DNA of 64,000 nt from Obelidium mucronatum (taxonomy: Eukaryota; Chytridiomycota; Chytridiomycetes; Chytridiales; Chytriomycetaceae), in NCBI GenBank assembly GCA_025765595.1, contig JAIVFH010000026.1, positions 1 through 64,000 of the forward strand, written 5' to 3'. Below the pieces are notes generated by a model. That model had not been told where the DNA came from, ran no database searches, and saw only the letters and a list, made by a program, of their open reading frames with translations. Positions 2,518 through 64,000 of this stretch are shown here, one piece after another; within the stretch, counting starts at the first letter, position 1; every line of letters begins with the position of its first letter. A program made the translations under genes and the position numbers.

Positions 2518-3339
2518 TAACCACCGCGGCAACAACTTCAACCGCCACCGCTCTCAGAGCCGCAGCAGCAGCCAAACCCGCTACCCAGGAAAGAGCCGCA
2601 TCAACAGCAGCTTCCTTTCCTTCTCTGCAGTCACCGATTGGTCCAACGACCATCAATCGCTGGACTACAGCAAACTCCATCACTCCGCTCTCAATCTAAT
2701 TGCACTCAGCTACGAATCAGACTCAGACTACATCTCCGACGAAGACAACTGAGGACGACCTCGAATTCTTCAGTCCCGACCACAGCAACCGCAGACTCTC
2801 CAGCTACCTGGACTCCTATTGACTCCTCTACTTCTACTACTCACACTGCCACTACTGCTACACCTACTAACACTACTACTTACTCTGCTACTTCTACTTC
2901 TACTACTACTACTCCAAATAAACCAAAGAACACAACGCTTTATTTGGAACAATCACCACTACGACCACTTCCGTTGACACCTTTATCAATCCAGCTCCGT
3001 CTGACGATCCACTCAGCCACTGGAAAGACTCTGATTACTTCCTTGAACACACGCTGCAACAACAAGTCCAGAACGCTCAAGCTGCTCTAGCCAAAGAAAT
3101 TCAGTTCATCCATCTATACTTAGAACTAAAAGATAAGGACTACTTACCAGGTACATCCCTCGTTTTCCCTGAACATGACCAAGCCAAGGTCGCCCTGGTT
3201 GCCGACGCTGTAGCCCTTAACGCTGTCGTTCCGCTTGCCCATGACGTCGATTTCCTTGATCCCGCCATTGATCCTCCAGCTGCCCTGCTCAAGTACCCCA
3301 GGTTCCTCTTTCCGCCCTTGTTTCCAAGTCCAGAACGCC

Positions 3340-3974
3340 TGCTTCAATTCCAACTTACCTTGACACTGGGGCCAGCAAGCATTTCTTCGCCCGATCCAGC
3401 GATTTTCCTGTCCAGAACACCGTTTCACGACACTGTAACAGTTGGTGGTGAGTCAAAGTGCACAATTGTGTCGAGGGGCAAGGTCGCACTTACTCCACCA
3501 GCAAACTCCAACGCCAAGACACTCGTTCTCAACGAGGTGTACCACGTTCCGCGCTTCCGTTCCAATCTTGTTTCCATGTCCGCGCTCGCAGCTCAAGGTT
3601 GCAGGTTAGTAATCGACAAGCACAAGGCCATCATCAGCCGCAACAATGAAACTGTACTTACCGCCACCGTCGACTCAAGAGGACTCTATCTAGTCGATTA
3701 CAGTCCCTCGCGCCCTCTCAGCCACGCGCTTACCACCGTCGCCACGTCACTTGAGTCGCTTCTTCACCGTCGCTTTGGTCACTGCGGCAAGGATGCGGTC
3801 AAGCGCATCATTGACTCCATGACCACTGGATCTCCTCTCGTCAAGCTCTCCATCGATCCTAAGTTCGTCTCCAGCTCCGAGTCCACCGCCGTCTGTACCA
3901 CCTGCCACCGCCGCCAACCTCCACAAGCGCCCGTTCACTCATCCGAAGGAGCGCTGCACTACCTTAGTAGGTAA
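3340..3974 (+). pseudogene. copia protease and GAG-pre-integrase region
   Basis: A retropepsin active-site motif LDTGASKHF is encoded near 3360-3390, in a different frame from the following ORF. That ORF carries the rest of the protease-like sequence and a copia GAG-pre-integrase motif: LHRRFGH near 3760 and a CxxC pair (CTTCH) near 3895. It stops at 3974, while the integrase continues in another frame from about 3952. At least two single-base frameshifts therefore separate protease, pre-integrase and integrase. Confidence 0.75.
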
Positions 3975-23500: not shown

Positions 23501-23648
23501 GGTGGCGGAAGTGGACACAATTGCCGATATCAATACTCAGGCTCCTGTCGCCCTCACTTTGCTGGTAGAGGCACGTCAGATTCTGGATGCCATTGAGCCC
23601 GAAGAGGATATGACGGAAGAGGATCTGGATGACCTCTTTTCGGAGTAA
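20515..23648 (+). CDS. block gene, copy 1: membrane/coiled-coil protein of unknown function
   Basis: Exons are 20515-20568, 20866-21140, 21200-21263, 21330-21438 and 21518-23648. Exon 2 starts with a hydrophobic segment (VVLLAAFAALVA), then a coiled coil through exons 3-5. A long Pro/Val/Thr/Ala-rich region follows, with four tandem units of about 23 residues containing YQSAELSTAADLVSL. The C-terminal half is shared with copy 2: FIDMPDSE, GNDWAADM, ESLKRRQCREPAS, RVARKEYSWAARVERLALA and the acidic end MTEEDLDDLFSE. Two extra bases break the frame, one near 20918 (exon 2 is 275 bases against 274 in copy 3) and one near 22985. It is therefore a recent pseudogene or carries sequence errors. I know no family for it. 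Confidence 0.7.
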
Positions 23649-30410: not shown

Positions 30411-33400
30411 ATGACTTTCGAAAGTGCTTTAATGCCTTCAACATTTGCTATTGCTCTTTTCGAAGTGAGTATATCCCCACACTCATTCCTTAATTACAGG
30501 CTGCTACTACTACTACCCCACACACACGCAATACTCGCTCTTCGGGACTTCCTTCTTTACTTCTCCTCCTTTGCTTCTTTTAATTCTTCTATATCTCTCG
30601 ATATTGGGATCCTCTGAACGAATGGACTTGCTGTTGGCATGGACGCGTTATTTAAATGGCTGAATCCTGGGACACGTCTTCAAGAAATTCCTGCCGCTTG
30701 ACAGCTCCTCCTCCTTCTCCTCACCCTCCTCACCCTCAACACCAATCTTTATTAACTCTCTATTCTTTATATTCAGGTTGTTTTTTTAATGGTTATCGCC
30801 GCGCTTGTCGCCTGCGATGCCATGACGTGCTTCCTGGCCTGGCGCCAGCGCCCCCAGGACCACCAGGCCCTCGAATGCGAGCTTTCGGCTGTTTTGGCCG
30901 AATGCGAGACGCTCAAGGGCCTGAGCGAGATTCTCTCGCTGGCCAACACGCGTCTGTGCAGGGAGGCTGCAAGCGCTGCGGCGGGCGATTGTTGAGGCCA
31001 ACGACACTGCGATGGCAGTGCGTATTAACCGCGGCCTGGTTTTCAATGAGCTGGACGCTTCGCGCGGTGAGTTTTTTTTATTTGTTTTCCTCTTGTTTGT
31101 GGTGTTAATTTTTTTTTTTTGTTTCATTTCCAATCTGCAGAGGAGTGTCGCGAGCTGAAGGAGAAATTGCGGGAGGCGTTGGAACGCGAACGCGACCTGC
31201 AAGAGTGAGTTTTTATTTTTTTATTATTATTATTTTATTTTATTTAGCAATGCACCTAAACAAAAAAAAATTGCGGTACCAGAGATCTTGTCCGTATGAC
31301 AAGATTCGAGGAGTTGGGGGCAAGAGAGATATTGAAGTTAAAAAGCGACTTCCTGGATTTGGAAATCCACCATTCCGCCATTTTGAAACTTGTGAGTTTT
31401 TTTTCCAAGCTTGTTGTTGTTTTTGAAAGTGTTTTCTTTCTTCTTTTCATCAAATGATTGTTACTGAGTTTATATGTTTTTCATTATCAGGGTGCTGCTA
31501 CTCAAAAAGCCCAAGAGGAAAAGGTGGAAGCCCAATCCCAGCGAGAGACGCTTGAGCTCTTGAATCAAGTTGCAGACCTCAAGAATCAACTTGAGCTACT
31601 TTCAGTGGCAAGTCCTCCCCTGGTGGAATCGGGAAGTGCCGAGACTCAAGTCTCTCCTCAAAAGTTTGTCTCATCACCAGTTGCTGAACTGGTTCCAGAT
31701 GCTGTCACGCTTCTTTCTTCAACCAGCGTTACGGACTGTATTTTGCTGTCCGAATTTGTATCCACAAATGCTCTTGATGTTGTTGAGTGTTGCACTCCCC
31801 CAGCTGTCCAAGTCCTTGCTATCGCGTCTCCATCCCGGACTGCTACTCCATTTCACATTTCTGTCATTCCAGCTACCGCCGTTGTCATTGCCAGCCGGTC
31901 CCCGGCGCCCGAAGAAGCCATTTCAACGCCGTTTCCAGTTGCCACGCCCCTTGACTCTGTGCCTTATCCAGTACCATCCGCAGATCTTGTTGATGTTTCT
32001 CCGCCTTCGGTCCAAGTATTTGCCACACCGTCTCCAGCCATAGCTTCTATTGAATTTATTCTGAACATCAACTCCACTCCTTTCACGCCTGCTGTCACAA
32101 CCGTCACAAGCCCTGTCGACATTGAAGTTGTGGTACCTGTTGCCGTCCCCTCTCCAGCTGCAGCTCCTATTGAAGCTCCAATGAGGACGCCATTTGAAGA
32201 TGTTTCCGCCCTGCCACCAGCCATTTTTGGTGCTATTGAAATTGTTGGCATTATTGTACCTGTCGATTCTGTCACCGCGTTATCCGAGTCAATACCTGCC
32301 CGAATCGCCACCACCATTCCCAAACCCACTGTTTCTGTCAAGGAGCGAGTGCGTCTTCTTGAGGAAGTGACCTCAGTTCTTGAGGACTCTACGGAAGAGC
32401 TTGCTGTGGCATTTCAAAGGCTGGATTTGACCGCAGGATTCGGGCAAGTAAATGAAGCCATGGATCTTGATTTGGCGGAAACAGTACAGTTGTTGGATGC
32501 TGCTCCAGCGGCTGAACCAGCATTACTTGAGACTTATGCAGAACAAGTGATTCTAGCAGTTTCGCAGTCGACTGTAGTGGCACTTGATTTACAGGATGAC
32601 GATCTGAGCACCGCGGCTGAGTTGGGCTCTCTTCCACCACCAACGCCTTCCCCCACCACTGCCCACCAATCCGTGGAACTGACCACCGCGGTTGAGTTGG
32701 ACTCTCTTCCACTACTATCACCTTCCACCACCACTGCCCACCAATTCGCGGAACTGAACACCGCGGCAGAATTGGGCTCTCTTCCACCGCCATCACCACC
32801 TTCCACCACCACTGTCCACCAATCCGCGGAACTGAGCACCACGGCAGATTTGATTTCTCTCTCCATCTTTAGAGATCAAGGAGAAGGAGATGAAGTGGAT
32901 GCAATGTTTATTGACATGCCGGACACCGAGGCGCCAGTCTACTGTCTTGGGAATGACTGGGCGGCGGAGATGGGTGAAGCTGAAGACCACGAAGAAGCGA
33001 TGGTGGCGATGCTGACCATTTGCTTGCAAGGAAATGGTTTGGACCTTGTTGCGCCAGCCGCCGAGGAACCCTTGGTAGCATCTGATGCGACTGCTGACAC
33101 AGATCTGTTCGCGTTTTGTGAAATCACTTCCTCTCCGGTTGTGGAGACGTGTGTAGCCGAAGGGGTCGAAGCTGCGGTTCTGTTTGGGGACGCGGATGTT
33201 GTCATGCAGGAGGCGGCCACTCAAGATAAGGGCTTGATGGAAGCCGCTGTTGTTGAAGACAGGCCTCAACTGGCGGAATCGCTGAAGCGCCGCCAGTTTC
33301 GCGAGCCCGCTTCAATAGCCAAGCGCCATGCTCGAGCTGCCCGAGAGACGGCAGTGCGTCTTGAGGTTTCCGTTGCAGTGGAAGCTGATGAGGATGTGGT

Positions 33401-33761
33401 GATGGGGGACCCACAACCGGCAGCACCGCGCGTTGCCCGCAAGGAGTACAGCTGGGCCGCCAGAGTGGAACGCCTTGCTTTGGCAGCACGGCGGATCCCG
33501 ACACAGGGTTCCGATGCACCAGCTGCGGCGGTGGTGGCGCCGGCGGTAGAAGCGAATTCACTGGATCTGTTTGCCAGTGTCTGTTGCGTCCAGGCTGCAG
33601 TTCTGCCTCTCACGGTGGCGGAAGTGAACACTCTTGCCGATATCGAGGCTCAGGCTCCCGTCGCCCTCACTTTGCTGGTAGAGGCACGTCAGATTCTGGA
33701 TGCCATTGAGCCCGAAAAGGATATGACGGAAGAGGATCTCGATGACCTCTTTTCAGAATAA
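30411..33761 (+). CDS. block gene, copy 2: membrane/coiled-coil protein of unknown function
   Basis: Exons are 30411-30464, 30777-31066, 31141-31204, 31283-31391 and 31491-33761. Exons 1, 3 and 4 have exactly the same lengths as in copy 1 (54, 64, 109), supporting the model. The product starts MTFESALMPSTFAIALFE, then a hydrophobic segment (VVFLMVIAALVA) and a coiled coil. A long Pro/Val/Thr/Ser-rich region has degenerate HQ(S/F)(A/V)EL units. The C-terminal domain matches copy 1: FIDMPDTEAPV, GNDWAAEM, ESLKRRQFREPAS, KEYSWAARVERLALAARR and EEDLDDLFSE. Exon 5 is one open frame of 757 codons. A single extra base in exon 2 near 30966 breaks the joined frame. Topology and function are unknown. 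Confidence 0.75.
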
Positions 33762-46729: not shown

Positions 46730-47938
46730 TTAACTTTTTTGTTTTGTACTTCGTGTGGTTCTTTCTGGGCCTGTTTTATCAGTAATTTGCCTCTGTTTTT
46801 CCAGCTTGAAAGGTATATGTGTGTTAGCCATTTTATGTGATATTTTGGAAAGAATTGAAGCAGTCATTGCTCTTTCTTTGTCATTTTTTTGCAGGTGTTT
46901 TGGTGTGCATTCGGTTATTGTGGAGTTTGTTATTATTCCTTTTGCTAGTAAAGAAGAGTGGAATCTTTTGTTGTTGAAATTGATCATTTTCAAGATGTTT
47001 TTGATCGATTTTTGTTCAGTTTTGCTTTCTTTTTCCATGATCTCCTGTTTTATTTTTTTGGCCGCGGTTTTCTGGTTTCAGATAGAGCTGGGCATGTCCA
47101 AATGTGGTCGTGTGTTTCTTTTTGTGTTTTGCATTGTGGACATGTGTCGTCTGTGGTTATTTTGTATTTGATTAGTTTATCAGGAGTGGGTAGGGTTTGG
47201 TTGACATTGTTGATTCTAAATGCTATTTCTTTGTAGTTTGTTTGGTCCAGTTTGTGTGTTTTTTCAAAGTGGTCTCTAATTAAGGATATTGTGATGTCTG
47301 GGTTTATATCTGGGTATTTGGTGCTGAGAATCCCTTTCGTTGCTTCTGTTGTTGATTTGTGGTATGTTTCTTTCATTATTTCCGCAGGGTATTTGCCTAT
47401 GATTTGGTTTTTGTGGGTTAAGAAGACGTAGTCTTGTGATTCTAAAGTAAAGTTCATTTTTTTCCGTGTCTTTTTCTTTGATTGCTTGTTTTGCGAGGAG
47501 GTCTGCATCATCATTTAGAGTACGGTTTCCCTTTTGGTGTGAGTTGATGTGTTTTATTTCTTGTGGAGCGTCTATTCGCATAGTTTGCTCAAAGATTCCT
47601 ATGTTAACTATGCAGTTTTTGGTTTTGATTACTTTTCTATTGTTGTTAAATAGATTTTCATTAGTTTTTTTAATTGCTTTGATTGTTGCTTGCGAGTCTG
47701 TGGTGATAACGTGTGCCGTTCCTTTAGAAATTTTTATTAGGCTTGCGTATATTGCGGCTTGTTCACTTTTGGTAGAGGATGCGTTTCCTTTTGGTACTTT
47801 GAAGCTTATTGCGTCAATTATTTTGTTTTCTTTGTCTGCATATATTGCTGCGGCACCCATTTTTGTTTTGTTTTGTAGCGAGCCGTCTGTCCATATTTGT
47901 ATGGGATCAGTGTTAATTTGCTGTATTTGTTCTTCCAT
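46730..47938 (-). pseudogene. LINE RNase H and C-terminal zinc finger
   Basis: The RNase H domain shows IWTDGSLQNKTKMGAAAI (first Asp), the Glu in SEQAAIYASL and ITTDSQATIKAI, with a final Asp in LNDDADLLAKQA. A Cys/His motif, CPQCKTQKETHDHIWTC, follows in another frame, as in many fungal LINEs. The frame change near 47460 and the stop near 47050 show decay. Confidence 0.8.
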
Positions 47939-48578
47939 TTGTGTTTGTTTCCATTGGTTTTCTTTGGCAGTGTTTTGGTTTTTGTTTTTGATTGAGAAGC
48001 TGACTTCTGTTGCAGTAGCTTGTCAGAGTTGGATTATTTGGTACCAGTATGGCGTGTTTATGGCTTCTTTTAGAGTGCTGTTGTTTTTATTTATTGCAAA
48101 TTGTTGGAATGATATTATTTTGTTTTGTCGTGATTAGTGAGGGTGTTTTTCCAGTCGTTTATTTTGTATTTTATTATTTCTTTATATGTTTGGGGGTATA
48201 GTTTAGGTGGTATTAGTCGAGAAGGTTATTTTTTATCTACCTTGGCGTATTTAAAGTTCATGTCGTTTTTATATAGAATATTTGACATATTGGATATGTA
48301 TGTGTGTCTTTTGGTTTGGAGTTTTAATGGGATTGGGCGTTCTAATAAGTTGATGGGAGTTTTGAGTTTTGTAGATAGTTGGTTTGCGTTTGTTGTTATT
48401 ATGTCTCGGTGGAAGTTTGGGGTTAGCATCCAACTAGAGATGTCTGTTATATTTCACCTGTTGACGTATTGTTTGATGTCTGTTAGATTTATTTCAAAGG
48501 CTTTATTGTAGAGACAGTGGGTTCCAATGTTGAGTGCGAGTTTGGATTTTTTTTTGGTTAATTTCCTTAGGGACGCGT

Positions 48579-49560
48579 TTATTTTTCGAGGATTACTTTG
48601 GATAGGTGAATCATTTGTATTCTGTAAGCAATTCTTGGTATGACCACCGTGTTTATAAGGTGTGTGGCAATGTTTCCTGGGATATATTTTGGTGACATGA
48701 TTTTGAGTGTGTTGTCTAGTTCTTTTTTGGCTGCGTTTAGAGTGTTGTCGTTTCCGTCGAGAGACCAGTATACTCCCAGTATTCTTATTGTTTTGTTATT
48801 GGGGACTATGTTTGCTTCTGTGATTGGTATGTTGTTTATGGCAAAGTCATTTGTGTTGGGATAGTCTGGGTGATCACTAGGGAGGTTTGATGCTATTTCC
48901 GTTTTGTCTGCATTTATTTTCATATTAAATAGGTTCATAAACGAGGTTATAATATCAATTTGTTTTTGGAGGTCTGTTTTGTTTTCGCTGATGTTTGTTG
49001 TGTCATCTGCAAACGCCGAAACTGTAATTTTGAGGTTATTGTCAAATTTGTATCCTTCTGTTTCTCTGTCTATTCTTCTCATTGCAGGATCGTAGTATAT
49101 TGCCCAGATAAGTGGAGAAAGTCCATCTCCTTGGGGGACTCCGCAAGTGGGGGTGAATGGGTCTGTGTTGCCGTGCGGTGTGTTAATGGTTAATTTACGT
49201 TGTTTAATAAGTACTTCTGTTAGTTTGATTATGGAGTTTGGTATTTTTATTCTTTCCATAGTTATTCTGATGGCTCTGAAATCCACGCTGTCAAACGCTT
49301 TTTCAGTGTCGATGAAGGCAGTGTATAGGTTTTTTTTGTTTGCTTTAGCATGATCGATGGCTAGTTTGATTGGTAAGAGTGCGTCTTGGCAGCTTTTTCC
49401 GGTTCTGAAGCTGAAGTTTCGGCCTTTGAGTATGTTGTGTTTGTCTATAATTTTTGTTAGTCTATCTTTGATAATGACACTTATTACTTTTCGGATTGTT
49501 TCAAGTAGTGTGATTGGGCGTGTTTTGTTTATTTGTCCTTGCCAGTTTGGGATTTTAGGG
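48579..49560 (-). pseudogene. LINE reverse transcriptase domain
   Basis: Readable blocks in order are RPITLLETIRKVISVIIKDR, SFRTGKSCQDALLPIKLAID, AFIDTEKAFDSVDF (first catalytic Asp), CGVPQGDGLSPL and FADDTTN (catalytic Asp pair). A thumb-like region follows, with ILGVYWSLDG. These are LINE-type RT motifs. The frame appears open from about 49560 to the stop at 48579, but it is interrupted upstream and before RNase H. Confidence 0.8.
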
Positions 49561-50215
49561 AGGAGGATGATTTCGGCAGTTTCTTGGTCTTGTGGGAGTG
49601 AGTAATTAGTTTTTATCAGGTTGGCTAATTTAGTGATTTGTTTGATTAGTTGTTCACTGTTTATCAGTATTTTTAAGTGATCGTATGACAGACCGGATGG
49701 GCCTGGGGTTTTATTGTTTGGTAGGTTGGAGATTGTGGTTTTTATTTCTTTTCGCTAAAGTCTATTGTCACATCGTTGAATATTTCTGGATTGATTTCTT
49801 CCAACGGGCTTAAGTCTTCTTTCCATTCTGGAGGTATTGTGATAGGTTCATTGTTTTTTGCACTCATGCTTTTTTCGTAGAACTTGTTGGTTTCTTTCAG
49901 TATCGTTTGCGATTCTTCTATGATATCGCCGTTTATTGATAAGTATTGGAGACCATCCCAGGTAATTTTGTTTTCCATTATTGAGTTAATATGTTTTTTT
50001 GGTTTAGCATGAATTTTGTTTGTCTATTCTTTTTGGCTTTGTTGATTTTTTCTTTTAGTGTATATTCGGCGATTCTTTCTTGTTGTTTGACAAGGATTTC
50101 TAACGATTTTTTGGTTAGTGGTTCAGTTTCCAGAGTATTTTTTTCTTCTGTTGAGATGTGGGTGTTTGTTGGGTTATTTATTATTCTTTTTGATGTTTCT
50201 CTGAGCCATTGTATT

Positions 50216-53286: not shown

Positions 53287-55289
53287 TTAAATGCACCACA
53301 GAGTGTGCATTACCTCATACAATGGCCTTCGTCTCAATTTTCTTTGAAGGCAAGTATTCATTTGAATATTTGCCTCCATCAGCAATTGCCGTACTGCTGG
53401 GCGAAGTAGATGAAACAAATACAAAGCTTTATGCGCAAATTCCAAGCAATCCTCCGTGATTCTGGGAAGGAGTTTCTTGCTTCTGTCCACATGCTTGAGG
53501 ATTGCCTCCTCGTGAATTGCTGTCGTTGTCCACAGCAACTTTTTTGCCTTGTTCAACAAGTTTGGGGTACTGGATTCATAGAGCCTGGCTCTCCAGCTTT
53601 CAAGCTGCTGGTTCTTGTTGTTGGCATCTTGTGCTGAGTGAAGCAGCAGAGTTAGTAGTTGTTTAAAGAAAACAATTGTACACACCCGTGGAGTGAAAAA
53701 ACTTGCAATTGGTACCAAATTTGCGTCCGTTTCTTGTTGTAAAAAAGTGGCATAAAATTTTTGGTGGACATCCCTTTTTCGGTGGTGAAGCTGACAGGGA
53801 TACCATGCCCTTCAGCACAGAGTTGCGATCACAATGACTAGAGAGGGTACGTCCAACAACTTTTCCCTCAAGTTCTTTGCCATTTGGCTGGAGGCTTGTA
53901 TTCACAATCGAGCAGTTTTCCTTTTGAATATCCTGTAATTTAGATAGCAACAACGACAATGACGATTTGCGTTTTCCCAGCAAATTCTCGTTTGAATTTT
54001 GGGAAGACGGTTTTGGCTGGTCACATTGAGCCAAGGGCGCTGATTGTTCCAAAGATGAAATGGATGAGATTTCAATGGAATTTTGGACAATCTTTGAAGG
54101 GTACTCACTGGTGGAGAGCCAAGCAATAATAGCATGCGGAAGTTCATTATCAATCACTGGTAAATCGGATTTTTGAATTGTACAGAATTCGGAAAGAGAC
54201 GAAGAAGTTTCTCCTACTTCCTGTGCTGTGGGAACTGCTGATTCAACAATTCTCTGGAAGATAAAAGTTAGTTTCGATTCTAAAGAGATGGAAGGTGAAA
54301 CTTCAAACCCACATTCATAATCTCATAGTGGACCTGTTCCATCTGGCACTCCAAGTTAGTTGACTGGATAATGTCAACATGTGACTGAGGCATGGTAGGT
54401 GTTGGTTGTTTGACATCAACTGGTGGAATATTTGACACAAGACTTGATGAAATTGCGGCATTGGGCGCACAAGTTATGACAGGTGTTGGATTATTCTTGG
54501 TGCAGTTTTCTGCAATATCAGGATTGCAAACCAGTGAATCAAGTTGGTGATGTACTTCTGGAAAGGTGTGGACAACTCCTTTGAATTTTGGAAAATTGAC
54601 GTGAGTTTTATGGGATGCATAGCAACAATATCAACTCACTATCACAAGTCATGATTCTTTCTTCAAATTCTGCTGGGCTTTGGGCTTCCCGTTCCTGAAA
54701 CGTTCTGAGTGTTAAGGCACAAAGAAGCAAACGTTGAAACTCACTTTCTCAGCTGCATCAAAATTGTGCATGGACAATTCTTTATCAGGTCTGCTGTAGT
54801 TAACTAGTGTATTGGAACTAATGGGTTTGACCAGTGACAGAATAGTAGAGGCTGGAACAGCACATGTACATGATGAAGTGTCAACTGGAGAAGTATTCAA
54901 CGCAATAAGGACTGAATTTGCAACGTTGGTCGTGGAAGTCTGTTGTCAACAGCTGTTGGCAAGTGGTACTGTTTTTGGGCCGGTAATAATATCTGTAATT
55001 ATTGCTTTCTGAGGCAGTGAGTGCAGCTGATAAAGCTTGTTTGAGAAAATGGGGAAGGGAGCAAGTCCTTTGAATTTTGGAGAAGCAAAGAATTAATAAG
55101 ACGACGAGAAACAGCACAACAACTCACCACCACAAGTTTTCATGCCGTCTTCAGCTTCTGTAAGCTTTTTGGATTCGGAGGATGAAAAAAAAGATGGGTC
55201 TCAACAGCCAAAAAAAAAAAAAAACAATGAACGGCAAAACTCACAGTCTCCACGTCCAAGTCTTTTTCTTCACGATTGAAAAAAGTCAT
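53287..55289 (-). CDS. multi-exon protein with degenerate CCCH finger
   Basis: The gene starts MTFFNREEKDLDVET at 55289 and runs through many small exons. The best-defined end exons are 54253-53686 and 53633-53287. The long exon encodes a Ser/Pro/Asn-rich region, then CHFFTTRNGRKFGTNCKFFH. That has the spacing of a C-x8-C-x5-C-x3-H zinc finger, except that the second Cys is Arg (CGC where TGC would be expected). The C-terminal exon is helical and basic (ARLYESSTPNLLNKAKKL onward). Exon pairs near 55140-55060 and 54650-54560 look like tandem duplicates (each AAAACTTGTGG or ATGACTTGTGA followed by the spacer TCCAAAATTCAAAG). CCCH fingers usually bind RNA; function here is unknown. Confidence 0.5.
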
Positions 55290-55863
55290 CAGCTCAACAT
55301 CACAAGGAATTACGTCATCATTGGAAGTGCAACACGAAAATACATTCCAAATGTTTGGTTTTTGATTCAGCTGCGTTGACTAAACTTGAGTTAATCGCGT
55401 TGTGGAGGGTCATTTGGAAAGTGGTCGGAAATGGAGTTTATTACGCGTATTCTTAAGTCGTTATTTCAGCATTTATTATCATTATTGAAAAGTTAAATAA
55501 ATTGTCAGACGTGCACCTCAAAAGCAAACGCGTTCATAACTCAGTCTTACTTACCAGTACCATCGAAACCAATCGGATCGTTCGTATCTAAAAGCAAATC
55601 TACGCTGGGATTTAAGTACTCATTTGTGATCACGCCAGACTTTTGTGTTGTCTTCATACGCACTTTAGTTTAACCGATCTATCGAACCCAATAATTCTCG
55701 TGGTTTTAGGTGGATTTCAAACCTACATTCCACAGTGGCACCCAAATATCGGAGATCGGCATTGGTGTGATCTATTTCGCTTTAATTCCATCCATCTTCT
55801 ATTTGGAGGGTGGTGAAATTGTCAGTCAAAATCTACAACAAAAACAACAACAACTTCTACAAC
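55290..55863 (+). other. leader / presumed 5' LTR of the EEP-pol element
   Basis: This region lies between the CCCH-like gene start and ORF1 and contains no substantial gene. A possible primer-binding site is TGGCACCCAAATATCGG near 55737, which would pair with a tRNA ending TTGGGTGCCA. LTR ends cannot be set without the 3' copy. Confidence 0.35.
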
Positions 55864-58782
55864 ATGCAGCATCAACTTCAGCAATTCAACCAACAGTTCA
55901 ACGGCGAACATCTCAACTCCTTCCTGGAGGCATGCCGACTTTACTTTGGCAATAACGGATTTGCTGAAGACTCCAAGAAAATCGAATTTATTACATCAAA
56001 ATTCACCCACGGTGTTCGACAGCAATATGACCTTTGGATCAGCGAGAGAGTTGCTCGTCAGCGACAGGAACATTCAAAGAAGACCGTTACACCTACCGGG
56101 TCAAGCGCGACTGGTGGGAAGGCAGCAACATCTTCAGCTGTCGATGAGTTCCTGGAAGACTTCTTGGATGATAGTTTCGTATATGTCCAACACAGCTACG
56201 ACCTGCTTGTCCGTTGGCTCCATCATCACTTCGACGACTTGGATGTTATTATTACAACACAGCATTTAAAGACTCTAGCGGAAAACACAAAGCGGACCGG
56301 CTACACTCAAATCTCCGAGTATGCAGCAGCGTATGAAGCTCTTGTCAGTCGAATGACCGCTGCTAATAAGCCTGATCCGCAAAATATGATTTCCATCTTC
56401 TTGTCTGGTTGTAATGCGGTCCATGCTCGCGAACTAGTTCGAAATTCCACAGTCGGCGGAAAGCGCAACACGGACTGGAGCAACTTTCGAACACTGATCC
56501 ATCAGGAAAATGAAGTGGATCGTGAACTTATTCATATTGACGCTGGGAAGGAGGGCCGCGAGTATACCAATCCGTTCTTGAATTCGAATCAACCGCTGTC
56601 ACAACCAAAGCCACCAACTTCAACGCCATCGCCAACGTCAACAGTCGATTCTGTTGAAGAATTAACCCGTCAACTTGAAGCTTTGAAGCTTTTCGTGCGA
56701 GCTGGTGGAAGCGTGGACGGATGTTCTACAGTTTCGCAACAGGCCAAAGACCTTTTCCTTTCCATTTCGCAAGGACCACCCGCTGCAGTCCCTCAAACAT
56801 CTATTGCTCCTACCCCAAGTACTGCTCCATTTGCTCCGGCTCCAGTAATGGCACAAACTCCAGTCCCACGACCAAGAGTTTGTATTGTGTGTGATCTTTC
56901 TCGAGAGAAACAACGGGAGTTAAAAGTCGAGGAACATGACACTCAATACGACTGTCCGTACCTGAAGGAGTTTATTGCAAAGGGTTATCCGATTAAGCGT
57001 GGAATGGTTCAAACCTCGCAAGGAGAGCGTCTCCACCTGGTCCAGCTGGATGGATCTAAATTTCCATTTATGGTTGGAAAGTGTGGAATCCGCAAGTTTC
57101 TCATGGATAAAAATGCCGAAGCCATGAAAGCCGGAAAAGGGATGCCTACCACTATGATGCTGAACGGAACCGAAGCGGGAACTTCTGAAATTCCTCGTGA
57201 TCTTCCATTTTCCCCTGTCGTCTACCCGGAAAGAGAAGAACTTTACCTCAAAGTATCGGAAGGGAACTTTGTTTTGAGCGTAGAGGTGCTGAAGACAATT
57301 GGGGGTTGCGTGATTCCTGACGAAGAGGCAGAAGCTGCCTTGGATGTGTTAATGGAACTTACCGGGAGCGACGGAGGAGATGTGTTTACTTGTGCACAAG
57401 TCATTGAAGAGGTTATGTTTGCAAGGTCTGAAGCGGAATTGTTGGCGGCCAAGCGAAGTCGGGACGCGGATGAAGAACCAATTGCGGGAATCCCCATTGA
57501 GAAGCTTCGTCGAATCCAACCTGCTCGGAGCCGCGCTCCAGTCGCAACTCCGTTTGATGCTGCGCCAGTTGCTCCAGAAGTTCCTAAGTCCCCAAAGCCA
57601 CAGCTTCTTCCGAAAGAAGTCCAGCCGCCTCAGCCAATCCCAGCTCCTTCCACGTCTGCTTCTACTCCGAAAAGACCATCGTCTCCAGCTCCGAAGCAGC
57701 TTCCAGTCCCACTCGAGAAAGTCCTACCCAAAAAGCCTGTACCAAAGTACAAATACGGCATGAAAGGGCCTCTTGTGGGAATCGATCAGGACGAAGTTGT
57801 TCTCAAGGCTTTCAATAAGCCGTTTTTGGGCTTTGATAATTTTTATGAGTTCCTTGTAGCATCGCCTCCAGCAGCAACTCACCTTCATAACTGTCTTCGA
57901 ACCCATCGAGTCTACCCGAAGATTGAAGAAGCCGTCCCAGTTCCTATGGCAGTAGATAGCGCTCAAGCGGACATTCAGCTTATCCAGAGTGTCCTTCTTC
58001 GCGACGGTCTTGACGAATCAACTCCATTGAGTGTCCAGAATCTGCTCCGGTCCAACGCGATGAAACTAGCCGAATGGGAAGGCGGGATGGACCATCTGGA
58101 ACAGATCTCAGCGAATCTGTACAAGTTGACAACCATCCCTCAGTTCGGAACTACTCTTGGATACCAATCGCTCGAAGAATTTCAGTCAAAAGCAACGTCA
58201 GACTTCAAAGCTCGTGTGTTCAGCATGGAATCAGCTCCACCACCTTCGTTTTCCGCTACCACTCAGTATTCTACCTATGCGTCGCCGCGTTTCCACAACG
58301 TGAAGTTCCAGAATGTCTTTGTAGTTGAATCGGTCTTGATGGATAAAGGTTCGGAATTGAACGCGTGCAGTTTTGATCTTGCCCGCGACGCGTCTGCAGA
58401 AGGTGCCTACGACTTGTCTGCTCTACTTTGGATGACAAATGCCGGAGGTGGAAGAAACCAACTTTACGGCTTGATTCGCGACGCCCGCGTTGGTCTTGAG
58501 GGAAAACTGGAAGCTAAACAAAAAGTCTGGATCTGCCCTCGTGGTGAAAAGACCCCTTTCGCGCTGCTCTTTGGTATGCCTTTCATTGCTGCGACGCGCG
58601 CGACTTCAACTTGGGATTCCAGAGGCAACATGTGGACCAAACTCACCTCGCAAGACGGAAAGCTCAGCGTTCAATACCAGACCGTCAGTTATTCGAGTGC
58701 AAGGAACATCGTGGAGCCACAGAAGAAGCCAAACGCAGAAGGCGACGACTTGATGATTTTGCCGTGGGCCGGTGGTTTGTGA
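55864..58782 (+). CDS. ORF1: Gag and retropepsin-like protease
   Basis: The first ATG in the frame is at 55864, giving 972 residues. Residues 1-190 are a helical Gag-like capsid region (FLEACRLYFGNNGF early on). A Pro/Thr/Ser linker leads to a Cys motif (C340-x2-C343 and C364) in place of a classic CCHC knuckle, then a charged and Pro-rich middle. The last 160 residues resemble fungal Ty3 protease: VLMDKGSELNACSFDLA with the likely catalytic Asp827 in DKGS (usual D-S/T-G), and LLFGMPFIAA (Gly904) as the second conserved hydrophobic-Gly motif. Lys in place of Ser/Thr in the active-site triplet is unusual. Stop TGA is at 58780-58782. Confidence 0.8.
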   Translation: MQHQLQQFNQQFNGEHLNSFLEACRLYFGNNGFAEDSKKIEFITSKFTHGVRQQYDLWISERVARQRQEHSKKTVTPTGSSATGGKAATSSAVDEFLEDFLDDSFVYVQHSYDLLVRWLHHHFDDLDVIITTQHLKTLAENTKRTGYTQISEYAAAYEALVSRMTAANKPDPQNMISIFLSGCNAVHARELVRNSTVGGKRNTDWSNFRTLIHQENEVDRELIHIDAGKEGREYTNPFLNSNQPLSQPKPPTSTPSPTSTVDSVEELTRQLEALKLFVRAGGSVDGCSTVSQQAKDLFLSISQGPPAAVPQTSIAPTPSTAPFAPAPVMAQTPVPRPRVCIVCDLSREKQRELKVEEHDTQYDCPYLKEFIAKGYPIKRGMVQTSQGERLHLVQLDGSKFPFMVGKCGIRKFLMDKNAEAMKAGKGMPTTMMLNGTEAGTSEIPRDLPFSPVVYPEREELYLKVSEGNFVLSVEVLKTIGGCVIPDEEAEAALDVLMELTGSDGGDVFTCAQVIEEVMFARSEAELLAAKRSRDADEEPIAGIPIEKLRRIQPARSRAPVATPFDAAPVAPEVPKSPKPQLLPKEVQPPQPIPAPSTSASTPKRPSSPAPKQLPVPLEKVLPKKPVPKYKYGMKGPLVGIDQDEVVLKAFNKPFLGFDNFYEFLVASPPAATHLHNCLRTHRVYPKIEEAVPVPMAVDSAQADIQLIQSVLLRDGLDESTPLSVQNLLRSNAMKLAEWEGGMDHLEQISANLYKLTTIPQFGTTLGYQSLEEFQSKATSDFKARVFSMESAPPPSFSATTQYSTYASPRFHNVKFQNVFVVESVLMDKGSELNACSFDLARDASAEGAYDLSALLWMTNAGGGRNQLYGLIRDARVGLEGKLEAKQKVWICPRGEKTPFALLFGMPFIAATRATSTWDSRGNMWTKLTSQDGKLSVQYQTVSYSSARNIVEPQKKPNAEGDDLMILPWAGGL

Positions 58783-58992
58783 GGGAGTTTGACGGAGTTG
58801 TTTTGTTATTTTAGACGTTAGAGGCGGATATTTCTTTTATTTCTTTATTTAACTTTTCAATTTATTCATTATTTATTTTGTTGGTCGCGAAAAATAAACA
58901 TTGGACAATTCTGCCCAAAAACAACGAACGATCAACAACGAAAACAAACAGTCCTATTCTGGACCAAACCGCGACTTCAAATTCTGTAAAAC
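58783..58992 (+). other. 210-nt inter-ORF region
   Basis: It separates ORF1 from ORF2, which share the same reading frame. Besides the ORF1 TGA, the frame has TAG (about 58819) and TAA (about 58987). Simple frameshifting or single-stop readthrough therefore cannot join the ORFs. The sequence is A/T-rich. ORF2 may need reinitiation, an internal entry site, splicing or a separate mRNA. Confidence 0.7.
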
Positions 58993-61900
58993 ATGTCCTT
59001 AAACTACAGCGATCAGATCGCCCCAACCACATCGTGGACCTGGGATCTCAATGTCGACGTCAGTAACGTCACATTCTGGTCCTGGAATCAAAACTCTACT
59101 CGCAACGCTTTTGCTAAAATGTCAGATGCCTCGAAGGCAGCTTTTGCAGCCGCCGACGTCGTGTTCCTTCAAGAAACCCGGTTCGGTCGCCAGTCATTTT
59201 CTGACATTCTTGAACATCCCAACATCGCCGACTACGCCGTCTATCAAACCCATGATTTCTACACATCGGAATTCCCACACGAGCAACTTCAACGGGGTCT
59301 CGGATCAAATGGAGTCGCTATCTTAGTCCGTCAATCCCTGTTTCAACAAACTCCAACTGTTCTCTTCGAAACCTTCCCTGGTTGGGACATCACCGACATG
59401 GAGGGACGTTATATCGAACTACACTTTGGAGAATTAGTGTTGATCTCGGCGTATTTTCCCAACGCCAGCCGCAACAATGATCATCGCCTCAATTACAAAT
59501 ATACATTTCAGACGGCTTTTGAAACGCGCGTTACACAGCTACAGAATGACGGACACTCCGTAGTGGTTGGCGCTGACTTCAACGTTGCGGGGACTCATTT
59601 GGATATACACTGCGACGTCGTTCCAATGATTAGCTCTGGATTCCGCCCGTTGGAGCGCGATTGGTTCAATAATCTTTCGCACCTCCTTCTTGACTCTTTT
59701 CGCTACTGTAACCCATTTCGGGCAGGAGATTACACTACATGGTTTTATCATAACCGTCGAGGGAATTTAGGGATGCGCTACGATGGCATTTTCAGTTCCC
59801 TCAATATTGTGCCGCTTACTTCCAGACATGATCACGCTATTGATGGCTCTGACCACATTCCTGTGGTCTCAACATTTGATTTGTCTGAGTTCACATCGGA
59901 TCTGATTACCCCTAGTTTTGCAATTTCTACAGTGGATTTGGGGTATTTCTATGTTGCACCTGGCGAGGAGACATGCTTTGACTATCCCGAATACGAACTG
60001 GAGGCCGACGATGAGTACGAAGAGACGCGAGCAAGATTACAACGTGCGTCAAATGTCTTCATGGAATATATTGAGTCATTGTCTGAGGAGGACGATGCTG
60101 AAGCTGCTGAAAGTCCTGCAGCTGAGATTGGGGAATTTGGCTTTATTGCCCTAGCAACACCCTCGGTTTCAGCGGTCCTTTGTGTCCCAGAGAGAGCGGG
60201 TTCTCTCTGTGCAGGCGCCCCTCCTCAGGCGAGTACTTCGTCTTTTATTTGTGATAGTCAGAATATTCACCTCGAACAATCGCAAGATCTCTCTGATACA
60301 TCGGAATCTCTGAATACGTGGAGGTTATACACTATCGAGGAAGAATTGGAAGTCTGTGAAAGTCCTGCGGTTGGAGTTGGGGAATTTGACACTTGTGTCC
60401 CAGTAACACCCTCGGCTCTAGCGAACCTTTGTGTTCCAGAGATATCTCTCTGCGCAGGCGACAAAACTCAGGCGAGTGCTTCATTCACTTCGCCTGAACC
60501 CGCAGATACTCACCAATCTTCTGAAGGTTCCACGGAGTTCTTCCAGTCCCAGACCGATGCAACATATACACACAATGTACAAGTCTATCCTGTGCAACGG
60601 TTCTACGACTCCCGATCAAAAATTATGAATATCAACTCCAAGCTGGGGCTGAGTCCAAGCGAGAATGTTATTGGAATTGCGAAACTTGAGGCTGACAAAA
60701 TGCATGAAGACGCATCTAAAGCAAAAGTCCACGAGATAGTGGAGGTCTTGGAGCGTTATATAAAGGGGGAAGGAATGACGGACTATGAAACAGCGGTATT
60801 GGACTGCGCGTATTTAAATTATTCAGCGGAATCTGAAGTGACGAACTCGGACTCTGAGACGGACGAAGGGTTCACTGCTCATTGTTTCACCAAGGCTAAA
60901 ACAGTAGACAAGAAAATCCGTCCCGTCAGCTCAAAATTACCAGATTCAGTAAAACCTGAGCGATGGCGAACTGAACTAGAAAATCTGTCTCCACCACCTC
61001 CTTTGCTCCCACCAGACCAACGTAGACTGACAGAGGAACGCCTCGATGGACTCTTTAAATATACGCGAGATAATTTTCCTGGGTTTATTAGTGAACCTGA
61101 GATTGAATACTGCAAAGAACGTATTCGACCATATGACCAGGCTTTTTCATTCGATCTTAAGGAACGTGGGAAGTTAAAAGAGGGACTTTTCGAACCTATT
61201 CGCATAAATACTGTTCCACATACCCCTTGGCAAACACGCGATCGTCCAGTTCCCCAGGCTCATTATCAAAAACTGTTGGAGTTTTTACGTGAAAAGTTAG
61301 AGAAAGGAATTATGGAGCCTAGTATTGGAGCTTATTCGTCACCGTGGTTCGTAGTTGCAAAGAAAGACGGAGGGATCAGATTTATCCAAGACTTGCAGCT
61401 TCTGAATAAGGTTACCATTCGGGATTCCAATTGTCCACCAAACATGGATGCTTCTACAGCACGAGCTGCTGGATACAAGGTCTACACTGGGATGGACTGC
61501 ATTAGCTTTTTCGACCAATTTATTCTGGATGTGCGAGATCGCGACTTGACCGCTATTCGAACCCCACTTGGATTGATGCGTATTACAGGGTTGCCGCAAG
61601 GCTGGTGTAATTCACCCGCCAATGCTCAACGGGTATCCGGAATGATATTTCAAAAAGAAGGGGAAGCAGAAGTGTTTGTCGATGATCTCTTAGCATTCTC
61701 TGGAAAACCCGCAGATACGTCGCTTTCCGATACACATCCGCTCGTTCGAAAATTCATAATCGAACACATGAATGTCGTTGAAACTATTCTACGAAAATTA
61801 ATTACCACTGGACTCACTATTCACGGAACAAAGAACCAATTTTTCGTCCCAAAGATTCTTTCACTGGGGGTCATCCTTTCAGAAGCCGGTCGTGAACCGA

Positions 61901-64000
61901 ATCCAAAGAAGATCGATGCGATTGATAAGTGGCACGCACCAAGAAATTTGAAGGAGCTTCGCTCCTTTGTTCAAACTGTCGCAACCTGGAGGTCTTGGAT
62001 CGAAGCCTTCTCAGTTCGTGCATTTCCACTGTTCTACTTGTATCGAAAGGGACAACCGTGGGAGTGGAAGGAACCGCAGCAAACAGCTTTCCTGGATTTG
62101 AAACAGGCTCTGAAGTCGCATCCCATTCGCCGGAACTTAGATGTCTCGGACTTACAGAACCGACCTCCAATCCTGTCAGTGGATGCATGCAAGGTAGGCG
62201 AAGGTGGCTCTCTGTGTCAAAAGGATGAAAACGGGAAGCGATTCCTTATTTTAATGATGTCGGGTCTGTTCAATGTAGCGGAGAGGTTATATTCGCAAAT
62301 CAAAATGGAATTATGCGGCCTGGTGCGATGTCTTCGAAGGATCTACTACATGATAGATGGAGTTCCAAAACTCATTGTTGAAGTTGACGCCAGCGGCCTG
62401 AAGGGTATGATGAACAATCCGTCTGTGGCTGATAGAACGATGCTCCGTTGGATCATATATGCTGGAACGTTTCCTATTGAGTTTGTCATTGTTCCAGGGA
62501 AGCGTAATGTAGTCCCTGATGGGACTTCGCGAATGTTTAGTTCGCCACCTCCTGAGGCGGATAGTTCAAATGATTCCGAAGATGTTGAGAACGCTATCGA
62601 ATCCATGTTGGACCTCTTTCAGGAAGCAGAGCTCCCCAGTGCTAATATATTCCTTGGAGATGCGTCAGAGTTCTCTGAAAACGAGGAGCTCCGCGATGTT
62701 TGCCAGTGGTTAGAATTTCAGACTTTCCGAGAAAACTTGAAACAACAACAAAGAGAACGCATTCGAGCATCAGCGGTTAGGTTCTTTATTCTCAATGGAT
62801 TCCTTTTTCGACGCGGGGAACATGCTGGAGATTATCCGAGACGAGTTGTTGGGAACACTGAACAACAGCTGCGGTTGATGAAAGAGGCACACGAAGGTCT
62901 TGGAGGCGGTCATTATTCTGCAAACCCAACATATCTGAAGTTGAGGGCAAAGTACTATTGGAAGGGAATGCAGAAGGATGTGCGCGAGTTCTGTGAAAAG
63001 TGTCTTCAGTGCCTGTATCATTCCCAGAAACGCGTCTATGAACCGGCTAAGCCTTCAAAGTCGCCTTTCTCTATTTGCATGGTCTGGTCTGGGGACGCCA
63101 TTGTCATGCCCTATGGGAAACACGGGAAGCGGTACTTATTTCATTTGGAAGAAGCCCTATCTTTGTGGCCGGAAGCGACTTCGTTCAAATTCAAGAAACT
63201 TATGCCAATTATGGAGTGGGTGGTAAAGGATGTCTTCATGCGCTTTGGTATGCCAATGGTTGTTCTGGTCGATAATGCCGAATTCACGTCTGAAGAGGCT
63301 AGGGATGTTAGTCTGAAGCTTGGATTCCAGATTCATGCTATTGCACCTCATAATCATAAAGCTCTAGCGGTTGAACGTGGACATGCTCCGTTGGTCAAAT
63401 CTATTGCGAAACTATGCCTCACAGAACCAAAAGAATGGCCTGAACACGTCACGTCAAGTCTGTTTGCCAAACGAATCAGTTGCACTAATCGCGGATATTC
63501 TCCATATAACATCATGTTTGGACAAGAACCTATGTTCTCCATTGACTTTGCTGCAGAATCCTATTTCTCTCAGTTATGGAAAGACGGAATGTCAACTGAG
63601 GAACTGTTGATGAGTCGTATGCTACAGCTTGAGAACAAGGAATACATTGTAGCTGCATCACGCGAAAGAGTAGATATTTCCAGGTACAAGTCTAGTTTGG
63701 AATACAATCTTCGACATAAAGGATCTTTACGTCTGGAACCGTTAAAAGTAAACGACTGGGTCTTGGTTTACAACTCGAATCTTGATCGCCAGTGGGGGCG
63801 AAAGCTTGAGAAAACGTTCATGGGTCCTTTTGTCATTTACGATGTTCTGGATGGAAGCTACTTGCTGCGGGAACTTGACGGAACTACATTCAAACGACCA
63901 TTTAGTGGAGATCGTTTAGTTCTCTTTCCTGTACCGTTGCAGTCCGAATTTGTTGACGAAGTGACTAGTTCTTCAAAGCCATCTGATCCCATCTTAGAAG
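58993..64000 (+). CDS. ORF2: EEP nuclease - RT - RNase H - integrase polyprotein (3' end beyond window)
   Basis: The frame is uninterrupted from ATG 58993 to the window edge, 1669 codons. Residues 18-300 are an EEP (APE/L1-EN) nuclease: Asn32 in WNQN, Glu61 in FLQETR, SNGVAILVRQ, ISAYFPNAS, Asp195 and Asn197 in GADFNV, Asp287-His288 in SDHIPV. An acidic linker (300-720) has two copies of an ESPA(A/V)..GEF unit. RT spans about 730-960: SSPWFVVAKKDGG, Asp835 in TGMDC, LPQGWCNSPA, FVDD at 895-898. RNase H has Asp1064, Glu1106, Asp1132 and Asp1176. Integrase has H1300-x6-H1307-x29-C1337-x2-C1340, then Asp1368, Asp1427 and Glu1461 (D-x33-E), and a GPF module (TFMGPFVIYDV). All catalytic residues are present. 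It probably cleaves, copies and integrates element DNA. What the EEP part does alongside an integrase is unknown. Confidence 0.9.
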   Translation, partial: MSLNYSDQIAPTTSWTWDLNVDVSNVTFWSWNQNSTRNAFAKMSDASKAAFAAADVVFLQETRFGRQSFSDILEHPNIADYAVYQTHDFYTSEFPHEQLQRGLGSNGVAILVRQSLFQQTPTVLFETFPGWDITDMEGRYIELHFGELVLISAYFPNASRNNDHRLNYKYTFQTAFETRVTQLQNDGHSVVVGADFNVAGTHLDIHCDVVPMISSGFRPLERDWFNNLSHLLLDSFRYCNPFRAGDYTTWFYHNRRGNLGMRYDGIFSSLNIVPLTSRHDHAIDGSDHIPVVSTFDLSEFTSDLITPSFAISTVDLGYFYVAPGEETCFDYPEYELEADDEYEETRARLQRASNVFMEYIESLSEEDDAEAAESPAAEIGEFGFIALATPSVSAVLCVPERAGSLCAGAPPQASTSSFICDSQNIHLEQSQDLSDTSESLNTWRLYTIEEELEVCESPAVGVGEFDTCVPVTPSALANLCVPEISLCAGDKTQASASFTSPEPADTHQSSEGSTEFFQSQTDATYTHNVQVYPVQRFYDSRSKIMNINSKLGLSPSENVIGIAKLEADKMHEDASKAKVHEIVEVLERYIKGEGMTDYETAVLDCAYLNYSAESEVTNSDSETDEGFTAHCFTKAKTVDKKIRPVSSKLPDSVKPERWRTELENLSPPPPLLPPDQRRLTEERLDGLFKYTRDNFPGFISEPEIEYCKERIRPYDQAFSFDLKERGKLKEGLFEPIRINTVPHTPWQTRDRPVPQAHYQKLLEFLREKLEKGIMEPSIGAYSSPWFVVAKKDGGIRFIQDLQLLNKVTIRDSNCPPNMDASTARAAGYKVYTGMDCISFFDQFILDVRDRDLTAIRTPLGLMRITGLPQGWCNSPANAQRVSGMIFQKEGEAEVFVDDLLAFSGKPADTSLSDTHPLVRKFIIEHMNVVETILRKLITTGLTIHGTKNQFFVPKILSLGVILSEAGREPNPKKIDAIDKWHAPRNLKELRSFVQTVATWRSWIEAFSVRAFPLFYLYRKGQPWEWKEPQQTAFLDLKQALKSHPIRRNLDVSDLQNRPPILSVDACKVGEGGSLCQKDENGKRFLILMMSGLFNVAERLYSQIKMELCGLVRCLRRIYYMIDGVPKLIVEVDASGLKGMMNNPSVADRTMLRWIIYAGTFPIEFVIVPGKRNVVPDGTSRMFSSPPPEADSSNDSEDVENAIESMLDLFQEAELPSANIFLGDASEFSENEELRDVCQWLEFQTFRENLKQQQRERIRASAVRFFILNGFLFRRGEHAGDYPRRVVGNTEQQLRLMKEAHEGLGGGHYSANPTYLKLRAKYYWKGMQKDVREFCEKCLQCLYHSQKRVYEPAKPSKSPFSICMVWSGDAIVMPYGKHGKRYLFHLEEALSLWPEATSFKFKKLMPIMEWVVKDVFMRFGMPMVVLVDNAEFTSEEARDVSLKLGFQIHAIAPHNHKALAVERGHAPLVKSIAKLCLTEPKEWPEHVTSSLFAKRISCTNRGYSPYNIMFGQEPMFSIDFAAESYFSQLWKDGMSTEELLMSRMLQLENKEYIVAASRERVDISRYKSSLEYNLRHKGSLRLEPLKVNDWVLVYNSNLDRQWGRKLEKTFMGPFVIYDVLDGSYLLRELDGTTFKRPFSGDRLVLFPVPLQSEFVDEVTSSSKPSDPILE

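What the first reader, a model, noticed from the sequence alone, without database searches (positions are those of the whole stretch)
58993..64000. EEP (APE/L1-type) endonuclease fused upstream of a Ty3-like RT-RNase H-integrase polyprotein
Seen directly: one unbroken frame carries the EEP catalytic set (Asn32, Glu61, Asp195/Asn197, Asp287-His288), RT (FVDD), RNase H (D-E-D-D) and a zinc-finger DDE integrase with a GPF tail. Known: EEP nucleases serve target-primed reverse transcription in non-LTR elements, while LTR elements rely on integrase. An element keeping both, each with intact catalytic residues, might have two integration routes, or might use the EEP nuclease for processing, target nicking or host-DNA manipulation. 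I cannot search databases, so novelty is unverified.
Basis: partly seen in the sequence, partly recalled or inferred. Interest (0 to 1): 0.88.

Follow-up and report, generated by a model that had tools for sequence, protein, structure and literature searches.

The report
Ty3 retrotransposon carrying DNA-repair-type nuclease
In a chytrid fungus, several families of retrovirus-like mobile elements carry an extra nuclease of the DNA-repair kind inside their replication polyprotein; the copies examined still insert the ordinary integrase way, so the nuclease probably trims or cleans the element's own DNA copy.

Summary
ORF2 (58993-64146, 1717 aa) is one frame: EEP nuclease, RT, RNase H, zinc-finger DDE integrase. 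It lies in a complete 9,084-bp LTR element with identical 334-bp LTRs, in a 48-Mb genome that is most likely Obelidium mucronatum. It is no assembly join: further copies and families share the fusion, as do three unnamed ENA proteins. Two domain orders occur: EEP before RT (families A, B) and EEP between RNase H and integrase (C and the RT-distant E/F). Of 94 integrase zinc-finger hits, 33 have an EEP nearby. The nuclease resembles ExoIII/APE1 repair enzymes, not LINE endonucleases. In A and B it is under purifying selection. A second, TPRT-like integration route is not supported: 7 of 9 A-C sites examined have perfect 4-bp target duplications. In A-C the APE1 F266 position is Thr in 10 of 10 sequences, aromatic in 18 of 18 cellular ones; in APE1, F266A speeds the 3'-mismatch exonuclease about 20- to 50-fold. 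Favoured mechanism (inferred): 3'-end trimming, cleaning or proofreading of the element's cDNA. Ten literature searches found no such fusion in fungi; one paper mentions sporadic Exo_endo_phos in animal Kuafuorterviruses.

The parts
55401..55734 (+). 5' LTR, 334 bp, TG...CA; identical to the 3' LTR at contig C26:64151-64484 (outside the window)
55736..55745 (+). PBS-like TGGCACCCAA one base after the LTR; shared with copy C10; the matching tRNA was not identified
   Evidence: sequence read; one search found no complement in the LTR
55810..58782 (+). ORF1, gag-like (position and length; no Pfam match)
58342..58353 (+). D-K-G-S, possible retropepsin active site near the end of ORF1; inference only
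   Evidence: D-x-G invariant in 5 of 5 ORF1 ends; the structure model failed
58993..64000 (+). ORF2 (pol), continues to 64146 in the contig; 1717 aa
59080..59856 (+). EEP nuclease, ExoIII/APE1 type (residues 30-288)
60088..60442 (+). EEP-RT linker with a 106-nt direct repeat (60088-60193, 60337-60442, 74% alike)
61357..61875 (+). Reverse transcriptase (RVT_1, FVDD)
62065..62457 (+). RNase H
62860..63018 (+). Integrase zinc finger (H2C2)
63082..63375 (+). DDE integrase core, D1368, D1427, E1461
   Evidence: (weak rve)
63823..63831 (+). GPF of the GPY/F-like integrase tail
   Evidence: sequence; motif name recalled

Best explanation
A young, complete Ty3/Gypsy-type LTR retrotransposon of a chytrid fungus whose Pol carries an ExoIII/APE1-type EEP nuclease. 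Shown: copies of families A-C have the structure that a DDE integrase leaves (two LTRs, 4-bp target duplications); the EEP is under purifying selection in families A and B; it sits at two different places of Pol in different families. Inferred: the nuclease is packaged with RT and acts on the element's own DNA copy during or just after reverse transcription, as a 3'-to-5' exonuclease or 3'-end cleaner (perhaps removing mismatches or blocked ends), and not as a target-nicking enzyme for target-primed reverse transcription. The identity of the parts is near certain; 0.5 is my odds for the inferred role.
For: Domains in one frame. Identical LTRs in the window copy and in C10, C93 and C21; perfect 4-bp duplications at 7 of 9 sites. 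Repair-type, not LINE-type, by PDB sequence search; model with pLDDT 77.5 whose 50 listed PDB matches are APE1/ExoIII-type. Selection: EEP pN/pS 0.07-0.16 in 6 of 6 pairs of four family B copies, 0.19 for C26 against C10. Pocket: the APE1 F266 position is Thr in 10 of 10 A-C rows and F/W in 18 of 18 cellular rows; APE1 F266A has a 3'-mismatch exonuclease about 20-fold (burst) and 50-fold (steady state) faster (PMC5785985, passages). EEP lies next to RT or between RNase H and integrase.
Against: No activity was measured. Thr is not Ala, and the APE1 result is from one enzyme. The 10 A-C rows are related (two are further copies in the same genome) and the 18 cellular rows are redundant. Met at the W280 position also occurs in cellular rows (2 of 18), so that change is not distinctive. 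E/F keep the Trp at W280 and have a gap or shift at F266, so the pocket argument does not cover them. Two of 9 sites (C26, the window copy: 3 of 4 bases; C493: none) lack a perfect duplication. EEP is less constrained than RT (0.01-0.04), and at larger distance (C93 against C493) synonymous change is saturated and the ratio (0.37) says little. Whether EEP is cut out of Pol or packaged is unknown.
Confidence: 0.5

Rival explanations
1. AP-site repair: the EEP is a true abasic-site endonuclease that removes uracil or abasic damage from the cDNA, comparable to the dUTPase that some retroviruses and LTR elements carry in Pol.
For: Nearest solved structures are APE1/ExoIII; catalytic set complete. 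dUTPase in LTR elements: PMC5408684, passages.
Against: The aromatic of the abasic pocket is lost in A-C; no dUTPase or glycosylase was found in the Pol frames scanned with Pfam.
Confidence: 0.2
2. RNA or primer processing: the EEP removes the tRNA primer, trims RNA from hybrids or processes transcript ends.
For: ExoIII/APE1 enzymes have side activities on RNA (recalled); DEDDy exonucleases in rotifer LTR elements were proposed to process RNA 3' ends (PMC5408684, passages).
Against: A separate RNase H is present and its residues match Pfam well.
Confidence: 0.14
3. Second integration route: the EEP nicks chromosomal DNA and primes reverse transcription there, as in LINE elements, alongside integrase.
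For: EEP before RT is the LINE order; EEP catalytic residues are intact.
Against: Not the LINE type of EEP; full LTRs and perfect 4-bp duplications at 7 of 9 sites; integrase residues kept. Fragmentary copies exist but were not tested for 5' truncation at insertion.
Confidence: 0.08
4. Passenger or artefact: a chance capture or assembly join without function.
For: Many copies are broken (e.g. C208, C144, C225).
Against: Copies on many contigs, three further ENA proteins, intact frames, identical LTRs and purifying selection.
Confidence: 0.03

Closest known systems
Ty3/Gypsy (Metaviridae) LTR retrotransposons of fungi; the nearest EEP-less RTs (39% and below) include proteins named from Tilletia and Phenoliferia
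   Same: LTRs, RT-RNase H-H2C2-DDE integrase order, 4-bp duplications, gag-like ORF1
   Different: EEP inside Pol; my EEP profile found no EEP in the other RT relatives returned (120 listed of 205) apart from P0001-P0003 and a weak match in P0096
ExoIII/APE1 (Xth) AP endonucleases
   Same: Fold (TM 0.73-0.78, normalised to the model, over the 50 listed matches) and the eight catalytic positions
   Different: 24-29% identity to five bacterial ExoIII-family proteins; fused to Pol; pocket aromatic replaced by Thr in A-C
APE-type LINE (non-LTR) elements
   Same: EEP before RT in families A and B
   Different: LTRs, integrase, fixed 4-bp duplications; EEP of repair type
Kuafuorterviruses (PMC11673190, passages)
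   Same: LTR elements in which Exo_endo_phos is said to occur sporadically
   Different: An animal lineage; there the domain is sporadic and thought to be host-derived. I did not compare sequences
Bdelloid rotifer LTR elements with dUTPase or DEDDy exonuclease; Klebsormidium Gypsy with Dnmt3 (PMC5408684, PMC5890265, passages)
   Same: Recurrent capture of accessory enzymes by LTR elements
   Different: Other enzymes; DEDDy is a separate ORF3

Membership tests
Ty3/Gypsy LTR retrotransposon | Paired LTRs with TG...CA ends | tested here: met
   (window copy, identical 334-bp LTRs)
Ty3/Gypsy LTR retrotransposon | Integrase downstream of RNase H, with H2C2 and DDE | tested here: met
   rve itself below the Pfam cut-off
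Ty3/Gypsy LTR retrotransposon | Short fixed target duplication (4-6 bp, recalled) | tested here: met
   7 of 9 sites perfect 4 bp; the window copy itself 3 of 4
Ty3/Gypsy LTR retrotransposon | RT groups with Ty3 RTs | tested here: met
   RT homologs are Ty3-type polyproteins; tree of 65 rows, without Copia, BEL or LINE outgroups
Ty3/Gypsy LTR retrotransposon | Gag and aspartic protease | tested here: inconclusive
   ORF1 has no Pfam match; D-x-G motif; model failed
Ty3/Gypsy LTR retrotransposon | tRNA primer binding site | tested here: inconclusive
   TGG... after the LTR; tRNA not identified
APE-type LINE | LINE-type EEP and RT, no LTR, variable duplications | tested here: not met
ExoIII/APE1 family nuclease | Fold and catalytic residues | tested here: met
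ExoIII/APE1 family nuclease | AP-endonuclease or 3'-to-5' exonuclease activity | not testable with these tools
   needs enzymology

The most novel reading that the evidence does not exclude
Ty3-type retrotransposons that recruited an APE1-like nuclease as a proofreading and end-trimming partner of reverse transcriptase: the opened pocket (F266 to Thr) makes it a strong 3'-to-5' mismatch exonuclease, so these would be reverse-transcribing elements with a built-in proofreader. RT-distant Ty3 lineages would have gained it separately or exchanged it, at different places in Pol.
Probability: 0.15. Interest if true: 0.93.

Novelty: new variant of a known kind. Interest (0 to 1): 0.74.

Why it matters
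LTR elements integrate with integrase, LINEs with an EEP or restriction-like nuclease. Young LTR families that carry a repair-type EEP inside Pol, at two positions and in distant RT lineages of one genome, show modular recruitment of DNA-repair enzymes by reverse-transcribing elements. They also make it directly testable whether a reverse transcriptase can gain a proofreading or end-cleaning partner.

Tried and rejected
L1-type EEP: rejected. Assembly join: rejected by copies. My own error: I labelled the EEPs of C625 and C601 (L051, L052) 'LINE' without checking; one search showed that C625 runs on into H2C2 and a DDE integrase, and that both loci are Ty3-type. One search repeats the tree with them named E/F. 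Genuine LINE-like loci exist too: 18 of 20 PF03372 hits that I picked by eye from the 67 have an RVT hit 1.5-3.3 kb downstream (RVT list also a selection, 24 of 150); they were not classified further.

One or several captures: not settled. EEPs of A, B and C are one clade (99/99); A-C plus E/F are one side of a branch at only 84/87, while their RTs are far apart. The family C RT lies near A/B (91/86), with the EEP-less P0007 nearer to A/B at weak support (92/76).

Led nowhere: viral contigs (no relatives), genome contigs (10 loci of bacterial MAGs, ExoIII-like), phages (12 records, partial ExoIII-like matches), Rfam over 55001-64000 (none), Pfam for ORF1 (only low-complexity-like weak matches in the family B ORF1), protease model (pLDDT 33), PBS complement in the LTR, tRNAs in 20 loci (two genes).

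Literature: ten searches were answered; three of them returned nothing. Passages only were seen of nine papers. The library lacks most subscription journals and Repbase, so an earlier description cannot be excluded.

Rows dropped before counts: the RT tree has 65 of 68 rows (P0050, P0051, P0056 dropped for coverage); of 205 RT hits 120 were listed, and the first 60 plus P0096 were given. The EEP tree left out L054, P0127, P0096 and L014, L015, L017, L018. In one search the 18 cellular rows include 10 similar MAG loci and two partial rows (P0125, P0127), and P0123/P0124 lack catalytic residues. joins only hits that the genome searches scored, so counts are lower bounds; its 61 H2C2 hits without EEP include C96, C595 and C400, which are family A copies with the EEP part missing or too diverged, and two fragments in C182. 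One search ended in a division by zero after most of its tables; redid family B.

Full report
What is there. ORF2 (58993-64146) encodes 1717 aa in one frame. Pfam gives Exo_endo_phos, RVT_1, two RNase H models, Integrase_H2C2 and a weak rve. Upstream lies ORF1 (55810-58782), without a Pfam match. Its C-terminal part aligns with ORF1 ends of four other copies or families around an invariant D-x-G, which suggests a retropepsin; the model failed (pLDDT 33), so this stays an inference.

The element. The window is C26:1-64000 of a 48.3-Mb assembly in 694 contigs. C26:55401-55734 and 64151-64484 are 334-bp LTRs without a difference, so the insertion is recent. Its flanks read GCGT / ACGT, three of four bases of a 4-bp duplication. 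Other sites: C10:270882-280118 (identical 342-bp LTRs, TSD CCAG, intact frame of 1767 aa); C196 and C85, which share one site (CTGC); family B at C93 (TTAG, identical 1007-bp LTRs), C10:421857-431053 (TGGG), C151 (ACGT) and C295 (CCCA); family C at C21 (CCAT, identical 182-bp LTRs); C493, with no matching flanks. Perfect 4-bp duplications thus occur at 7 of 9 sites. That is what a DDE integrase leaves.

Host. P0121, 92% identical to the EEP, is annotated in Obelidium mucronatum on a contig of 152,285 bases, exactly the length of C85, where such a copy lies. The genome is therefore most likely that of this chytrid (lineage).

Families and domain order. A genome search with ORF2 gives 48 matches (28 of 210 candidates scored). 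Seven loci have EEP and RT in one stop-free frame with EEP first: C26, C10 (274 kb), C93, C151, C10 (426 kb), C295 and C493; Pfam on three of them other than the window copy confirms EEP-RT-RNase H-H2C2. In family C the order differs: C579 has RT-RNase H-EEP in one 865-aa frame and H2C2 in the next frame downstream; C21 has the same order across two frames. Genome-wide tables for EEP, H2C2, RNase H and RVT were joined. Of 94 H2C2 hits, 33 have an EEP on the same strand nearby: 16 between RNase H and integrase, 10 before RT/RNase H, and 7 without an RNase H hit to decide. The RNase H to H2C2 distance is 1420-1940 nt in the 16, and 484-778 nt in those EEP-less hits that have an RNase H hit, so the insert shows in the spacing. 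Two of the 16 are family C; the other 14 I call E/F. C601 (1600 aa) and C33 (1580 aa) carry RNase H, EEP and H2C2 in one stop-free frame; no RVT hit was listed for them. Ten of the 14 have an RVT hit upstream in the right order (C625, C182 twice, C77, C183, C305, C140, C132, C191, and a partial one in C649, where 150 of 224 candidates were scored).

Two distant RT lineages. In the 65-row RT tree the EEP-first elements (A, B, B2 and P0001-P0003) form one clade (100/99), family C close by but weakly placed. The RT of C625 scores 320 bits against P0052 but only 52-97 bits against families A-C. EEP-bearing elements are thus not one narrow RT clade. P0096, a 2802-aa ENA polyprotein with EEP upstream of an aspartic-protease motif, may be a further arrangement (profile match E=2.4e-9, precomputed PF03372).

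What the EEP is. The window EEP matches 55 distinct PDB sequences at E<=1, of ExoIII, APE1, APE2 and Crc type. Families C, B and E give the same picture (in one search also a chance-level MutL match at 0.04). None is named as a LINE endonuclease. The AlphaFold model (pLDDT 77.5, pTM 0.85, 11 sequences) matches APE1/ExoIII-type chains at TM 0.73-0.78 in the 50 rows shown of 451. EEPs of A-C form one clade (99/99); the branch joining them with E/F against 13 cellular sequences has 84/87. No cellular source is pinned down.

Selection. Between C26 and C10 synonymous change is saturated; pN/pS is 0.19 in EEP, 0.13 in RT, 0.10 in RNase H and 0.14 in integrase, and dN/dS is 0.42 in the linker. Among four family B copies EEP pN/pS is 0.07-0.16 in 6 of 6 (non-independent) pairs, RT 0.01-0.04. 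For C93 against C493 the ratio is 0.37 in EEP and 0.41 in RT with saturated synonymous sites. The EEP of A and B is thus maintained, though less constrained than RT. Selection was not tested in C, E or F.

Pocket. All eight catalytic positions are kept in every A, B, C, E and F row that covers them. The APE1 F266 position is Thr in 10 of 10 A-C rows and F or W in 18 of 18 cellular rows. The W280 position is Met (9) or Phe (1) in A-C, and in cellular rows Trp (14), Met (2) or Leu (2), so it is less telling. E/F have a gap at F266 in this alignment and keep Trp at W280. The F266 column was checked through 5wn3, the F266A mutant (title), which has Ala there. In APE1, F266A raises the 3'-mismatch exonuclease burst from 0.9 to 21 per second and the steady-state rate from 0.045 to 2.1 (PMC5785985, passages).

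Mechanism. Shown: LTR structure, 4-bp duplications, kept integrase residues, EEP under selection in A and B. Inferred: EEP works beside RT on the cDNA, most likely on 3' ends. Odds: this 0.5, AP-site repair 0.2, RNA or primer processing 0.14, TPRT 0.08, passenger 0.03; the rest unknown. In E/F the same placement argument holds, but neither duplications nor selection nor the pocket argument is available.

Novelty. Accessory enzymes in LTR elements are known: dUTPase and DEDDy exonuclease in rotifers (PMC5408684), Dnmt3 in a charophyte Gypsy (PMC5890265), sporadic Exo_endo_phos in Kuafuorterviruses (PMC11673190); AP-type endonucleases occur in Helentrons (PMC6431247). The passages found in a survey of fungal LTR elements do not mention such a domain (PMC3248453), and a 2024 fungal survey ties PF03372 to LINEs (PMC10799480). 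All these were seen as passages only. I rate this a new variant of a known kind.

Noticed in passing
G000 C625, C182 (two), C128, C601, C649, C33, C77, C183, C132, C191, C305, C140, C473: A second group of Ty3-type loci, RT-distant from the window element where tested (C625), with EEP between RNase H and integrase.
   Followed up: partly
P0096 (ENA, 2802 aa): Polyprotein with an EEP upstream of an aspartic-protease motif and a Ty3-type RT, RNase H and integrase: possibly a third arrangement.
   Followed up: partly
G000 C93:38543-42841 and C151:51990-56288: Mosaic: the 3' part of ORF2 (RNase H to integrase) is nearly identical, the 5' part (EEP to RT) 88-98% alike, as after template switching or gene conversion.
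   Followed up: partly
Just before the 3' LTR in C26, C10 (family A) and C93, C151 (family B): Shared hairpin-like CGTCAAGGGACGACG whose outer bases differ but still pair (AA/TT against TG/CA).
   Followed up: no
G000 C167, about 12.5, 21.4 and 30.3 kb: Three equal degraded family B-like copies at 8.88-kb spacing: a tandem array.
   Followed up: no
G000 C85 and C196: Family A copies with the same flanks and TSD CTGC: one insertion present on two contigs, by duplication or as haplotypes.
   Followed up: partly
window 60088-60442: 106-nt direct repeat (74%) in the EEP-RT linker, seen also in copies C85, C10, C196 and C208.
   Followed up: no
window 2922-6633: Ty1/Copia-like gag-pol reading frames (integrase and RT motifs read by eye).
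   Followed up: no
window 47276-49754, minus strand: LINE-like RT (RVT hit C26:48771-49532) and an RNase H-like frame.
   Followed up: no
window 21488-23648 and 31458-33761: Two related long frames with repeated 'QSAELSTAADLVSL' segments: a duplicated repetitive gene.
   Followed up: no
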